This document shows positions 35,446-55,021 of a stretch of DNA of 64,000 bases, piece after piece. Positions within the stretch are counted from its first letter, which is position 1, and every line of letters begins with the position of its first letter. A model generated the notes under the pieces. The model saw only the letters and a list, made by a program, of their open reading frames with translations, was not told the origin of the DNA and did not search any database. The translations under genes and the position numbers were made by a program. The DNA is from Rhynchosporium graminicola (Eukaryota > Ascomycota > Leotiomycetes > Helotiales > Ploettnerulaceae): assembly GCA_900074885.1 (NCBI GenBank), contig FJUW01000005.1, positions 774,242 to 838,241 on the forward strand. Direction: 5' to 3'.

Positions 35446-36214
35446 TTTGAAGTGTTCCGGTCCATTGACCACGTCGTCGCATCTCCTGGACTCAGTGATC
35501 CAATTAGTAAGTCGGAACATTCGCAGGCACTTTTGGTCCAAGTCCGACCGCGACAGTAGCGCGATCCGTCGCTGATGGAGATATTTGTTGATAGGAAGTG
35601 TGCGCGACAACCTATCTCACCCTCATGGGGTGGTGGTGAGGTTGTGGTTGTTGATCGCCGGCTGTCAATCTGGCGATGATGCACTAGCGCCGGGATGTTT
35701 CGCTGACGTCGATTGCGAGTGCGTGAGCCCCTTTTTTGAAAAATCCGCAAAAGTCACCCGAACAACGTAACGTACAGGTGCGCAATAATGTACAAGAAAG
35801 AAATCAATTACAAGTCGCGAGGAGTGAATGCCGAGCGACAAAAGAAGATCCGAAGATCGAATGTTGCCGTGGCGGCGTGGAGAAAAGTGTGGTTGAGTGA
35901 GTTAGTTGTGTTTTGCGCTGCGACGGGGGAAATGGCGCGAAGAGGTAACTTGATGACGAGTCTCTGGAGGCCAACAAAGGCAAGAGAAAGTCGGATGGAT
36001 GTATTACAAAGGTCGAAAGAGTCATAAAGGGGGCGTGGGTGAAAGTAGGAAGCAGGCCAGACCAGACCAGGCCAGGCCAGCCAGATAGATAATTAAAACA
36101 GAAAGAAGTTTCGGAAGAAAAGGGTCGCAGTCGTGCCGGTGTTGAGAGGGACTGGAAGGGAGATGGACAGTGAGTGGGAAGGAAGGAGGTATGTTGCGTG
36201 CAGTGGTAAGGGGA

Positions 36215-36240
36215 GGGAAGGGAAGGGAAGGGAAGGGAAG
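36215..36240. repeat. (GGGAA)n microsatellite
   Basis: About five GGGAA units, followed by a G-run. It is part of the repeat-rich 35.7-40 kb interval. Confidence 0.85.
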
Positions 36241-36601
36241 GGGGATTGAGGAGGGATGGAAGGAGTTCGGGCGGCGTCGTGGAATTTGCTCAGAGAGTTG
36301 GGCGGACAGGAGTGGGAGTGGGAGTGTGAGTGTGTGAGTGTGAGTGTGAGTGGGGCAGTGGGGCAGTGGGGCTCTAGCCTCTCTTGGCGGAATGAGTACT
36401 TAGTATGAGTGTGCGTCTGGTGCAGCACCTGGGCGGGCTAGGCAGGGAAGCAGGGATCACTGACGCCGCGGGGACAGGGATCGAGCTGGGAGGAAAGGCG
36501 TGGGTGGGATGGGACGCGGACGCCTTGGGATCACTTTTGGGGAATTCTGGCGTCGAGCGTGTGGCTGACAAGTGATTGGCTAGCTGCGCTGGGGCTGGGG
36601 T

Positions 36602-48143: not shown

Positions 48144-49563
48144 TAGTGTGAATTAACTTTTTTGTTCAAGTGTTGAAACTCAAGAACGTATTACTGTAGG
48201 TAGATTGAAGCGAACCCCGCTCTGCTGACATCATTCAGGATCGACGGTTCGCTTGGAGATAGCCAGAGTAAATAGAGTATCACAGTATTTACTTATCAAT
48301 AATGAATCGGTACTGGATGTTGATTTGAGTCACAAAAATGCAATAGAACATCATGCAGTCGGAATCTGATGTCATGGATATATTTTATGGACGGATGTTG
48401 ATGTACAGGGGAGGGCCTTACTGTAAGTCTTGCGATTGACATTTTGTACTTTTCTAGACACATGTCTGATCTGAGTCGACTTCAGCGTACTAACTCGAAT
48501 TCAATCGGTCCCTCCTGGAATTTGGAGATCCGTAATTCGCAATACTGTGAGTACCACGTTCGCTGTTCTTCCAGTGACACTCTGCCGAACACGGATTATC
48601 AGCTTCTGAACTGGAAGCCCGTTACAAGATTTTGGTTACGGGTTTATCTGGCATATCCGGTTAAGTTGGATGGATCATAAACGCTTTGTGAGACGAGGTT
48701 GGTGAAGACTTACGTAGATTCTTAGCCCATGCCATTGGATTCTCCCAATTCCGTTCTATGCCCGTACCGATTTCCATACATGGCGAGTAAAGGAGTCCAT
48801 TCGTATTGGACTCCCCGTGAAAAAACCGCAGAGGTAAATCGATACAAAGATCCTGCTTCTGGATCCACTTGACAGGAATATTTTCCGGACATTTCTCTAG
48901 GCGGGAGGTTGTGCCATGACTCTAGACCGGCCGAATGACACTGCATCGAGCCTTGACAAGAATCGAAACGTCGAAATCAGAAGCGCTGGAATGTTCCATG
49001 GCAGAAAACATTGATTTGGAGTTTTAACTGATACCGATGGTCGCCGGTTGAGGTGTGTTGCTCTTTCACCAAAAGAACAATATTAGTGGCAAGACAATAC
49101 TAAGGGGCTCGCTTAGCAGAACAATATCAAGCTCCCCCTTTCAACTTCACGATCTTCATCCGTCCACCATACGCACTACCCAGTAAAATTGACAGAAAAC
49201 ACGGAAACATCCATCGAAATCCCTGAATTCAGGAAGGTTTGGGTCCAGGAACAAAGTAAATCATGAAATCGATACATGCCACGAGGACATCGGAGCTGCC
49301 ACAGGAACGTGGAACTTCGATACCATGATTAGCTCAGATACAAATTCCTTGTCCACTTGCTCGTAGCAGTACATCTATGTAGTATCTGTCTTTGTAGTCA
49401 TGGACAGGTGGTATTCGAAGAACAGTCTTCAGAATATGTATATAATCTCTCCTCTTCCCTCGCAGAACTAACTTCTCTCTTCACCCACTCACATCATACA
49501 CACTCAATCACATACTCCACACACACACACAACACATCTTCCAGACAAAGCAACCAAACAAAC
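48144..49563. promoter_or_regulatory. Region upstream of the repeat-peptide gene
   Basis: About 1.4 kb between the divergent alcohol dehydrogenase and repeat-peptide genes. A TATA-like GTATATAATC lies at about 49438-49447. A CA-rich leader with (AC)n at about 49518-49531 and an A-rich context (ACAAACATG) directly precedes the start. HMG-box-type core sites (ACAAAG at 49545-49550, CTTTG near 49391) are present; such cores are common and are weak evidence. Confidence 0.4.
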
Positions 49564-49743
49564 ATGTCTCCATCCACATCTCAACGAGGCGGCGGTGCTT
49601 TCTGCACTGTCCAACGCGGAGGCGGAGCTTTCTGCACTGTCCAGCGTGGAGGCGGAGCCTTCTGCACTGTCCAGCGAGGCGGTGGAGCCTTCTGCACCGT
49701 TCAACGCGGAGGTGGAGCTTTCTGCACTGTCCAGCGCGCATAG
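49564..49743 (+). CDS. 59-aa tandem-repeat peptide precursor, five RGGGAFCTVQ units
   Basis: The frame starts at the first in-frame ATG (49564). After MSPSTSQ come five 30-nt units at 49585-49734, then RA and stop. Each unit encodes RGGGAFCTVQ without change. Eight nucleotide columns vary among the units, all at codon third positions and all synonymous, so purifying selection on this peptide in this frame is very likely. The overlapping frames (49595-49777 + and the two on the minus strand) vary at protein level and are shadows. CTVQ fits a CaaX prenylation box (X = Gln suits farnesyltransferase) and would become terminal if units were cleaved at Arg and trimmed. The MSPSTS start recalls a-type pheromone precursors (Neurospora MPSTAAST). 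No signal peptide or Lys-Arg Kex2 site is seen. I suggest a lipopeptide pheromone-like precursor; other repeat-peptide roles remain possible. Confidence 0.75.
   Translation: MSPSTSQRGGGAFCTVQRGGGAFCTVQRGGGAFCTVQRGGGAFCTVQRGGGAFCTVQRA
49585..49734 (+). repeat. Five 30-bp coding tandem repeats
   Basis: Five contiguous units of 30 bp that differ only at third codon positions (columns 3, 6, 9, 12, 15, 24, 27 and 30). The Phe TTC and Cys TGC codons are fully invariant. Confidence 0.97.
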
Positions 49744-52795: not shown

Positions 52796-55021
52796 ATGAA
52801 AATGCGTTTCTCAAATATCGTCACAGCTATAGCTCTCACAGCAAGTGTAGCTTCCGCGGCTATTCAGTCAGGAAGAAGTTTAAAGCATGTTGGAAAAGCA
52901 GACAAGCCTCGCAACATTCATCGTAGCACTTCTCCAACAAAGACGCACGACCGACCAAGCGCCCACAAGTATTTGACCCCTTCTACTGCCAGTAAGTACC
53001 GAACAAAATACTGGGAGATCCATTGTTTATGCAAGATACAGAATATGTCGTCAATGGAAGTAAGATACCTGATGTCAACTTCGACATTGGGGAGTCTTAC
53101 GCTGGTTTAATGCCAATTTCAAAGGCAGCCAACGAATCCAGCGAGTTTTACTTTTGGTTCTTCCCTTCTGAAAACCCGGCAGCTAGCGACGAGATTTTGA
53201 TCTGGCTCAATGGAGGTGTAAGTGTTTTGGATTTTGATATTGAGGTGCCATTCGGGACAGTGAAGCCATACTGACTTCAATGACAGCCAGGTTGCTCATC
53301 TCTAGAGGGTCTCTTACAAGAAAATGGCCCATTCATCTGGTACGTAGCGGCTAAGCCTACAATTCTCGCCAATGTCTCAAAGAGATCTTGAGACATGTCC
53401 CATCCTTTTTACAAGATATTTGTCCAACTTGCGGTCAACCGCTAATGCTCCTTCTTTTTACAGGCAGTACGGCACATATCGACCTGTAAAGAACCCGTAT
53501 ACCTGGGTCAACCTCACGAATGTGGTCTGGGTCGAGCAGCCAATTGGCACTGGCTTTACACAGGGGACTCCAACCGCAGAAGATGAAACAGAAGTTGCTG
53601 CTCAATTCATGGGCTTCTGGGAGAACTTCATGGATACATTTGATTTGAAGGGACGTAAAGTGTTCATCACAGGGGAAAGTTGTAAGTCTATTCGAAGTCC
53701 GTAGCTTTGAAATTGGTACTAATGCCCCCAAGACGCAGGTAATTACTATGACATACTGCTATGAATTATTTGCTAATCTTGGACCGAGGTGTTTATGTCC
53801 CTTACATAGCCTCAAATATGCTTGATAAGAACGATACAACTGTGAGTCACATTTGTTGCGTGGGGGAACCATAGTGCTAAGCAATAGGTTAGTATTTCAA
53901 CGTAGAAGCGACTATGATCTACGACCCTGCAATAGCTCCCTTTGCCATACAACAGCAGATCCCAGCAGTCCAGTTCGTAGATTACTGGTCCGGCCTTCAT
54001 CCCTTCAACGATAGCTATCGAGCCTTCTTACACAACAGGTCCGAGTCCTGCGGCTTTAATGCATATCTCGAGAAATACTTGACATTCCCTCCACCGGGAC
54101 CATTTCCCGTAGAAATTCCAGGCAACAATGCAGACGGAACACCAACCGATGATTGCGACGTATTTGATACTATTTATGACGAGATTCAACGGCTGAATCC
54201 GTGCTGGGATCCCTATCAAGTTGCAACGACCTGCCCGCAACTTTGGGATGTCCTTGGATTTCCTGGTGTGCAGGATTATTTGCCCGAAGGAGCCAAGATT
54301 TATTTTGATAGAACAGATGTTCAGAAGGCTATTAATGCACCAATTGGGAAATGGAAGGAGTGCTCTGATGGAGTGCTGGAACCTGATAATAGTGATTGGC
54401 CTTTATATAGTGTTCTCCCTAGTGTTATTGAGAGGACTAAGCGGACTGTCATTGGACAAGGAGTAAGTCCTTCTGAAGATCTCGCGAGCTTCTTCACTAA
54501 CTACTATAGGCTCTGGATTTTATGATCATGACGAATGGTACTCTTTTGGCCATTCAAAATATGACTTGGTGAGTCTCGCTTAAATGTCACCAAATCTGCT
54601 GATGGCTTTACTAACCTCCCAACAGGAATGGAGCTCAGGGCTTCCAAGAAAAGCCAAAAAGCCCCATGTATGTACCTTTCCATCATGAAAGCAGTCAATC
54701 AACGTTGGCTGGCTCTGGTGTGATGGGAACCACCCATACAGAGCGTGGTCTCACCTGGGCCAGTGTGAATCTTGCGGGCCACAGTAAGTCCTTCCTCGAT
54801 GAGTGAGCAACCTACTGCGAGTTTCTAACATATTAGTGGTTCCACAATACGCTCCCTCTGCCGCGTATAGGCATCTTGAGTTCTTGCTCGGCCGAGTCGA
54901 ATCCTTGTCGTCTACTGTCCCCTTCACCACTATGGACTATCCACAGCCAAAGGGGCCGCTGGGGAATGGAACTGCACTACCGCCTAGAGTGGTGGCGAGA
55001 GGGTTTGAATGGGAGTTTTAA
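52796..55021 (+). CDS. Secreted serine carboxypeptidase (peptidase family S10)
   Basis: Ten exons, 52796-52991, 53036-53217, 53287-53339, 53464-53681, 53733-53738, 53789-53841, 53893-54462, 54510-54568, 54626-54783 and 54837-55021, give 559 aa. Signal peptide: [21 protein letters not shown]. Family motifs: [16 protein letters not shown] (oxyanion region), GES-YAG with nucleophile Ser216, [17 protein letters not shown] with Asp429, and NLAGHMVPQYAP with His498, completing the Ser-Asp-His triad. Cys residues (ESC, DDC, PCWD, TTC, KEC) suggest disulphides, and several N-glycosylation sites are present. These enzymes remove C-terminal amino acids at acid pH, outside the cell or in the vacuole. 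The fifth exon is only 6 nt (ACGCAG), encoding the middle of Tyr-Ala-Gly next to the nucleophile. It is bounded by good branch sites in both introns. Confidence 0.92.
53733..53738 (+). other. 6-nt micro-exon in carboxypeptidase gene
   Basis: The introns 53682-53732 (GTAAGT...AAG, branch TACTAAT) and 53739-53788 (GTAATT...GAG, branch GCTAAT) leave only ACGCAG between them. Joining T|ACGCAG|GT yields Tyr-Ala-Gly after Gly-Glu-Ser, exactly the S10 nucleophile motif GESYAG. Confidence 0.85.

What the first reader, a model, noticed from the sequence alone, without database searches (positions are those of the whole stretch)
49564..49743. Tandem-repeat peptide gene with five identical CaaX-like units under strong purifying selection
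Five 30-bp units encode RGGGAFCTVQ without a single amino-acid change. Eight of ten codons vary between units, only at third positions and only synonymously. This is what a precursor of a repeated bioactive peptide looks like. The C-T-V-Q ending fits a farnesylation box once the following Arg is removed. Neurospora a-factor ends in CVVM, and Trichoderma h-type precursors carry several C(T/S)V-type boxes. The absence of a signal peptide fits export by an a-factor type transporter. Arg-only spacers instead of Lys-Arg, and a Gly-rich core, differ from known classes, so this could be a new pheromone-like or RiPP-like family. The pheromone idea is inference.
Basis: partly seen in the sequence, partly recalled or inferred. 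Interest (0 to 1): 0.9.

Follow-up and report, generated by a model that had tools for sequence, protein, structure and literature searches.

The report
Tandem CaaX-like fungal peptide precursor
A helotialean fungus carries a small gene that spells the same ten-residue unit five times, with only silent differences between the copies and with relatives in two named fungal genera; it is likely the precursor of several copies of one short, predicted lipid-tagged signalling peptide.

Summary
Window 49564-49743 (+) encodes MSPSTSQ-(RGGGAFCTVQ)x5-RA; all 8 variable columns of the 30-bp unit are third positions (P = 7.7e-6) and no residue changes. Two relatives exist: a Rhexocercosporidium protein (five units, RGGGSFCTVQ type) and MBM_07939 of Drepanopeziza brunnea (six units, RAGGQFCTVQ type). 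Units keep R...F-C-polar-aliphatic-Q-R; one of 16 has Leu for Cys. The residue before F is uniform within each protein but differs between the three (A, S, Q). Upstream DNA also matches the Rhexocercosporidium record and is not coding here. Best model: a multicopy precursor cut at each Arg, exposing C-T-V-Q ends for farnesylation, as in rhodotorucine A of red yeasts. Cleavage, prenylation, export and any mating role are untested. It is not the only a-factor candidate: the genome also has a gene ending CTVM (L109) that fits the published Leotiomycete a-factor description, plus STE3, STE2, a MAT1-1-1 alpha box and a normal alpha-factor. It fails the h-type and ordinary a-factor definitions because its C-terminus is QRA. 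A real gene family on which no paper was found; a new variant of a known kind.

The parts
49564..49743 (+). Coding sequence of the 59-aa tandem-unit precursor, MSPSTSQ-(RGGGAFCTVQ)x5-RA-stop
   Evidence: synonymous-only variation; relatives P0006 and P0007
49564..49584 (+). Short Ser/Thr-containing leader MSPSTSQ; the Rhexocercosporidium relative has MSPSIIQK in the same place
49585..49734 (+). Five 30-bp units RGGGAFCTVQ; each holds a C-T-V-Q box followed by Arg
   Evidence: units; tandem repeat 49582-49738
49735..49743 (+). Terminal Arg-Ala and TAG stop; relatives end Arg-Cys and Arg-Ser, so no unit ends at the very C-terminus
49325..49459 (+). Conserved upstream stretch that matches the annotated N-terminus of P0006 (20 of 45 residues, no gaps) but is in another frame than the units and holds a stop here; read as promoter, not coding
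   Evidence: score 81; next best 29, of 127,726 window segments
49439..49447 (+). TATA-box-like TATATAATC, 125 bp before the ATG, followed by a CT-rich then CA-rich leader
   Evidence: position; sequence; function inferred

Best explanation
This gene encodes five identical RGGGAFCTVQ units and is likely a multicopy precursor that would be cut at each Arg, predicted to be farnesylated on the Cys once the C-T-V-Q end is free, and likely exported as a short lipopeptide signal. Steps: (1) a 59-aa protein with no signal-like hydrophobic stretch is encoded (read from the sequence; translation itself not shown); (2) cleavage at the single Arg between units and trimming of the Arg, leaving GGGAFCTVQ (inferred); (3) farnesylation at C-T-V-Q, removal of TVQ and methylation, giving GGGAFC-farnesyl methyl ester, perhaps with an N-terminal Arg (inferred); (4) export by an a-factor-type ABC transporter (inferred); (5) reception by another cell, with STE3 the obvious candidate receptor (inferred). 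The layout is that of the rhodotorucine A precursor. It need not be the main mating pheromone.
For: Silent-only divergence of five units (P = 7.7e-6; 0.8e-5 to 2.1e-5) shows selection on each copy's residues rather than recent DNA homogenisation. Two relatives in named Helotiales genera have five and six units (E = 5.5e-19 and 2.4e-16; sequences; lineages). Over the 16 units of the three proteins Cys stands in 15, and the three residues at the box positions are TVQ in 13, NVQ in 2, TIQ in 1 (the unit pattern itself required Arg, Phe and Gln). That is always polar, aliphatic, Gln, the 'CPAX' order proposed for pheromone prenylation in Hypocreales in PMC3068285 (passages). Gln as last residue suits farnesyltransferase (yeast Ydj1 CASQ, recalled). 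The residue before Phe is A in 5 of 5, S in 5 of 5, Q in 6 of 6 units: uniform within a protein, different between the three fungi, as expected of a species' own signal. Unit number, Gly count and one unit's Cys vary, as a copy-redundant precursor allows. Maximum 15-residue hydropathy is 0.8, 0.54 and 0.24, which argues against a signal peptide. The genome has the receptors STE3 and STE2, a MAT1-1-1 alpha box and a normal alpha-factor gene. The upstream region is conserved with the Rhexocercosporidium record.
Against: The C-T-V-Q boxes are all internal and the protein ends QRA, so farnesyltransferase cannot act without prior cleavage, and no enzyme for cutting at a single Arg in a protein without a signal peptide is known to me here; PMC3068285 says the enzymes that mature rhodotorucine A are not known (passage). 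The genome has another gene (L109, 60 aa, Ser-rich, GY, ending CTVM) that fits the published Leotiomycete a-factor (description in PMC10569646). The passages seen of a yeast CXXX prenylation survey (PMC11304957) do not mention CTVQ. No transcript, peptide or mutant was seen. The gene lies on contig C46, STE3 on C57. One Rhexocercosporidium unit has Leu for Cys. Many short units with a Cys would fit a loose CaaX rule by chance.
Confidence: 0.48

Rival explanations
1. An unprenylated repeat peptide: the precursor is cut at Arg and the free or otherwise modified GGGAFCTVQ peptide is the product, a RiPP-like or signalling peptide in which TVQ is kept.
For: Arg at every joint; the TVQ part is about as conserved as the Gly-Phe-Cys part; the first joint in the Rhexocercosporidium protein is Lys-Arg, a Kex2-type site.
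Against: No signal-like hydrophobic stretch; single Arg rather than Lys-Arg at the other joints; no RiPP-type domain among 10 neighbouring ORFs scanned with Pfam, though these are not all the exons of the window.
Confidence: 0.18
2. A small intact repeat protein that is never cut: a Gly/Arg/Cys-rich protein that binds RNA (RGG-like) or metal, or crosslinks through its evenly spaced Cys.
For: RGGG motifs and evenly spaced Cys; 59, 62 and 64 aa in the three proteins, the last two after trimming to the inferred start.
Against: The residue next to Phe changes between the three fungi but in all units at once; unit number and Gly count vary; one unit has no Cys. RGG proteins do not need a conserved F-C-polar-aliphatic-Q (general knowledge).
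Confidence: 0.2
3. It is the lineage's true a-factor, the STE3 ligand, and the published CTVM gene is not the mating pheromone. (This is a special case of the best explanation, so the odds overlap.)
For: STE3 is present. The authors of PMC10569646 say themselves that the function of their CTVM gene is unclear, with no mating-type-dependent expression in three species and identical proteins in 19 of 20 Botrytis species. The repeat gene's core differs between the three fungi as a mate signal would.
Against: A CTVM gene is present in this genome; the paper found its gene in at least 111 of 124 species, while relatives of the repeat gene were seen in only two annotated genomes. No link to STE3. 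The authors also note that culture conditions may not have favoured mating genes.
Confidence: 0.2
4. Chance open frame in a non-coding minisatellite.
For: A 30-bp period keeps several frames open; four other frames also lack stops.
Against: Third-position-only change, relatives with conserved protein units, conserved upstream region.
Confidence: 0.02

Closest known systems
Rhodotorucine A precursors (RHA genes) of red yeasts such as Rhodosporidium toruloides
   Same: Tandem peptide units separated by CAAX-like spacers (PMC3068285, passage); only synonymous changes in RHA2.A1 between strains of Sporidiobolus salmonicolor and S. johnsonii (PMC3236058, passage; that is between strains, not between units); single basic residue at the joint (unit ending CTVAK, recalled).
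   Different: Basidiomycete, in the MAT region with STE3; different peptide core (YPEISWTRNGC, recalled). Here the fungus is an ascomycete, the core is Gly-rich, the box ends in Gln, the joint is Arg, and STE3 is on another contig.
h-type pheromone precursors (HPP1 of Trichoderma reesei and Fusarium relatives)
   Same: Ascomycete, several C-polar-aliphatic-X boxes in one small protein without signal sequence; HPP1 is needed for male fertility (PMC3068285, abstract and passages).
   Different: HPP1 has three (LI)GC(TS)VM motifs and one forms the C-terminus; here there are five FCTVQ and the C-terminus is QRA.
Putative Leotiomycete a-factor (BCIN_13g03330 family, PMC10569646, section 21)
   Same: Small, Ser/Thr-containing leader, C-T-V tripeptide, same class of fungi.
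   Different: That family has a CAAX or CPAX box at the C-terminus, most often CTVM, and mostly a GY motif; a gene of that description exists separately in this genome (L109).
Kex2-processed repeat proteins and dikaritin-type RiPP precursors
   Same: Tandem identical peptides with a basic residue at each joint (recalled; only listings of these papers were seen).
   Different: Those have a signal peptide and mostly Lys-Arg joints (recalled); neither is seen here (one Lys-Arg joint in the P0006 relative).

Membership tests
Rhodotorucine A-type tandem lipopeptide precursor | Tandem near-identical peptide units | tested here: met
   Five identical units; five and six in relatives
Rhodotorucine A-type tandem lipopeptide precursor | CAAX-like spacer after the Cys of each unit, then a basic residue | tested here: met
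   Cys in 15 of 16 units; box TVQ, NVQ or TIQ, then Arg
Rhodotorucine A-type tandem lipopeptide precursor | Mature peptide farnesylated on Cys | not testable with these tools
   Needs mass spectrometry
Rhodotorucine A-type tandem lipopeptide precursor | Homologous core sequence, or in the pheromone/receptor locus beside STE3 | tested here: not met
   Gene on contig C46, STE3 on C57; core unlike the recalled rhodotorucine core. So it works like one but is not filed as a member.
h-type (HPP1) precursor | Three copies of the (LI)GC(TS)VM motif, one at the extreme C-terminus | tested here: not met
   Five FCTVQ copies, C-terminus QRA; definition
Leotiomycete/Sordariomycete a-factor | CAAX or CPAX at the C-terminus | tested here: not met
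   Ends QRA, QRC, QRS in the three proteins
Leotiomycete/Sordariomycete a-factor | GY motif near the C-terminus (87 of at least 111 Leotiomycete genes) | tested here: not met
   No GY in the 59 residues
Leotiomycete/Sordariomycete a-factor | Length 45-64 aa (Leotiomycete range) | tested here: met
   59 aa; 62 and 64 aa for the trimmed relatives
Leotiomycete/Sordariomycete a-factor | Sequence homology to BCIN_13g03330 | not tested
   That sequence was not in the text seen, and supplements were not available
Kex2-processed repeat protein / dikaritin RiPP | N-terminal signal peptide | tested here: not met
   Highest 15-residue hydropathy 0.8, within the repeats; no dedicated predictor was run
Kex2-processed repeat protein / dikaritin RiPP | Lys-Arg joints | tested here: not met
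   Single Arg joints; one Lys-Arg only in P0006

The most novel reading that the evidence does not exclude
A lineage of helotialean ascomycetes has independently built a rhodotorucine-style multicopy farnesyl-peptide signal, cut at single arginines, with the peptide's identity switched in all copies at once between fungi; it is the real ligand of STE3 in these fungi, and the published CTVM gene has another job.
Probability: 0.17. Interest if true: 0.85.

Novelty: new variant of a known kind. Interest (0 to 1): 0.62.

Why it matters
The a-type pheromone of Pezizomycotina outside Sordariomycetes is an open question: PMC10569646 reports the first candidate and doubts its mating role. A second conserved family with multiple farnesylation-like boxes gives a directly testable alternative or additional signal. 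If the boxes are used, the cell must have an unidentified protease that cuts a leaderless protein at single Arg residues before prenylation, the same unsolved step as in rhodotorucine A. The conserved units also allow the family to be sought in unannotated genomes by a simple pattern.

Tried and rejected
A direct protein search of the 59-aa ORF found nothing, probably because candidates must be 0.55-1.75 times the query's length and the relatives' gene models (149 and 215 aa) are longer. The same residues searched within the 136-aa stop-to-stop frame gave 3 proteins with E up to 1 among 5577 candidates. The third, P0008 (E = 0.29, 104 aa), was dropped as chance and is in no count.

The idea that this gene replaced the a-factor was first favoured, because the GY-C-x-x-M-stop pattern gave 0 hits and three other patterns gave 16, 2 and 11 places without a clear candidate (all 29 frames looked at). 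Some of the 29 are Ras/Rho-like proteins by my reading of the translations (L007, L008, L018), which shows that the patterns can find CaaX genes; L026 (27-aa frame ending SSYYCVIM) and L011 (27-aa frame ending CGCCVIM) remain undecided. The idea was dropped when the CTVM-stop pattern (12 places) gave L109. The reversed-pattern control gave 13 places for that pattern and 8 for that, so the number of hits is no more than chance; L109 stands out by its frame, not by the count. Another of the 12, L107, also has a 26-aa Ser-rich frame ending CTVM, but a longer open frame runs through the same DNA in another frame, so I did not favour it. CSxM and CTIL endings without G-F/Y before them were not searched.

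An antisense gene was rejected: that frame has a stop in one unit. A longer protein starting upstream was rejected: the upstream stretch conserved with P0006 lies in another frame and holds a stop. Scans of viral and prokaryote collections with the unit pattern gave 12 and 44 stretches with one match each and no array; I take these as chance, and those collections are not fungal. Pfam and NCBIfam gave nothing above cut-off for the repeat proteins or L109. No paper in the library holds FCTVQ, CTVQRG or FCNVQ or MBM_07939; other literature searches were made, seen as listings. PDB search of the neighbouring carboxypeptidase exon gave nothing. PMC11304957 passages gave nothing on CTVQ.

Full report
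What is there. The + strand at 49564-49743 encodes MSPSTSQ, five copies of RGGGAFCTVQ, then RA and stop. The five 30-bp units differ at 8 of 30 columns, all of them third positions and all silent. The chance of such placement is 7.7e-6, and the chance that 9 or more changes are all synonymous is about 1e-5 (0.8e-5 to 2.1e-5). No other frame behaves so: four have 7-8 variable residue columns, and the antisense frame that shares third positions has a stop in one unit. The array is the top-scoring of 13 tandem repeat rows of the window and occurs once in the 55.3-Mb genome.

What the fungus is. A 225-residue piece of its STE3 found 5 proteins; the best with an organism name is from Cadophora sp. 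DSE1049 (74% identity), in Ploettnerulaceae, Helotiales. Its alpha-factor gene has eight RCGHPGQPCG units on C60 (a ninth match on C103 was not examined), a repeat that PMC10569646 lists for Ploettnerulaceae, Drepanopezizaceae and Mollisiaceae (section 22).

Relatives. A search with the 59 residues inside the longer open frame returned 3 proteins with E up to 1 among 5577 candidates; two are real. P0006, from Rhexocercosporidium sp. MPI-PUGE-AT-0058, ends MSPSIIQK-RGGGGSFCTVQ-RGGGSFLTVQ-RGGGSFCTVQ-RGGGGSFCTIQ-RGGGSFCTVQ-RC. P0007, MBM_07939 of Drepanopeziza brunnea, ends MAQ-RGGQFCNVQ-RAGGQFCNVQ-(RAGGQFCTVQ)x4-RS. Both are annotated as longer proteins. The annotated N-terminus of P0006 matches the window's DNA at 49325-49459 (20 of 45 residues without gaps; score 81 against 29 for the next best of 127,726 segments), but in the window this stretch is in another frame than the units and holds a stop. 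It is therefore most likely promoter sequence, containing the TATA-like motif at 49439, and the P0006 gene model likely starts too early. Trimmed to the Met that I infer as start, the three proteins are 59, 62 and 64 aa.

What is conserved. Among 16 units, Cys is present in 15; the box residues are TVQ in 13, NVQ in 2 and TIQ in 1; the residue before Phe is A (5 of 5), S (5 of 5) or Q (6 of 6) by protein. So the box keeps the order polar, aliphatic, Gln, and the core changes between the three fungi in all units together. The pattern used to cut out the units required Arg, Phe and Gln; by eye, all of each protein between leader and end is covered by such units.

How it most likely works. The order C-polar-aliphatic-X is the CPAX motif that PMC3068285 proposes for pheromone prenylation in Hypocreales (passages). 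Because the boxes are internal, each must first be freed. Cleavage at the single Arg and trimming would leave GGGAFCTVQ, a farnesyltransferase-type end. [quoted passage not shown] In RHA2.A1 genes only synonymous changes were found between strains of two red yeast species (PMC3236058, passage); here the silent changes are between units of one gene. All processing steps here are inferred.

Is it the mating pheromone? The genome has STE3, STE2 (one in-frame TGA in the match, probably an intron), a MAT1-1-1 alpha box and a normal alpha-factor. Pattern searches for a conventional a-factor gave 0, 16, 2, 11 and 12 places, with reversed-pattern controls of 0, 8, 0, 0 and 13. One of the last 12, L109, is a 60-aa ORF, MCISSSS...DGYECCCIPIPCTVM, which fits the Leotiomycete putative a-factor described in PMC10569646: 45-64 aa, Ser/Thr-rich start, GY near the end, most often CTVM (section 21). 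Homology to their gene was not tested. So the repeat gene is an additional candidate, not the only one. The same paper doubts its gene: no mating-type-dependent expression in three species and identical proteins in 19 of 20 Botrytis species. Which gene feeds STE3 is open.

Surroundings. Upstream, a divergent iron-containing alcohol dehydrogenase gene on the other strand starts about 1.4 kb away. Downstream, an exon at 53893-54522 matches Peptidase_S10; a signal-like start at about 52796, 3 kb from the repeat gene, probably belongs to it, though no call joined the exons. None of the 10 neighbouring ORFs scanned shows a RiPP-type domain; other ORFs of the window were not scanned.

Limits. No expression data, no DNA of the relatives, no signal-peptide program, and a protein database that seems thin in these fungi (5 hits for STE3). 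PMC10569646 was read as abstract, sections 9, 21, 22, 23, part 1 of 2 of section 27, and passages; PMC3068285 as abstract and passages; PMC3236058 and PMC11304957 as passages. Supplements were not available.

Noticed in passing
L109 1333-1515 (own genome C68, near 1822663): A 60-aa Ser-rich ORF ending GYECCCIPIPCTVM that fits the description of the published Leotiomycete putative a-factor; the GY is not next to the CTVM box, and the Cys cluster looks unlike a Sordariomycete a-factor (recalled).
   Followed up: partly
window 49325-49459: The annotated N-terminus of the Rhexocercosporidium protein BKA65DRAFT_499113 (P0006) looks like translated promoter DNA by comparison with this window; the gene model likely starts too early. 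P0007 (MBM_07939) also looks over-long at its N-terminus.
   Followed up: partly
window 52796-54525: A Peptidase_S10 serine carboxypeptidase exon (53893-54522) and a signal-like start at about 52796, 3 kb downstream; this class includes Kex1-like enzymes that trim C-terminal Arg/Lys (recalled). Link to the repeat gene is only by proximity.
   Followed up: partly
own genome C46:654394-655290: STE2 lies on the same contig as the repeat gene, about 169 kb away; the match reads through one TGA, probably an intron.
   Followed up: no
L011, L026 and L107 around 1501-1521 (own genome): Three further short frames ending in CaaX boxes (CGCCVIM, YYCVIM and LCTVM; 27, 27 and 26 aa from a Met); status unknown, L107 probably a by-product of a gene in another frame.
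   Followed up: partly
window 36208-36362: A cluster of short G-rich tandem repeats (AAGGG, GGAGTG, 20-bp unit).
   Followed up: no
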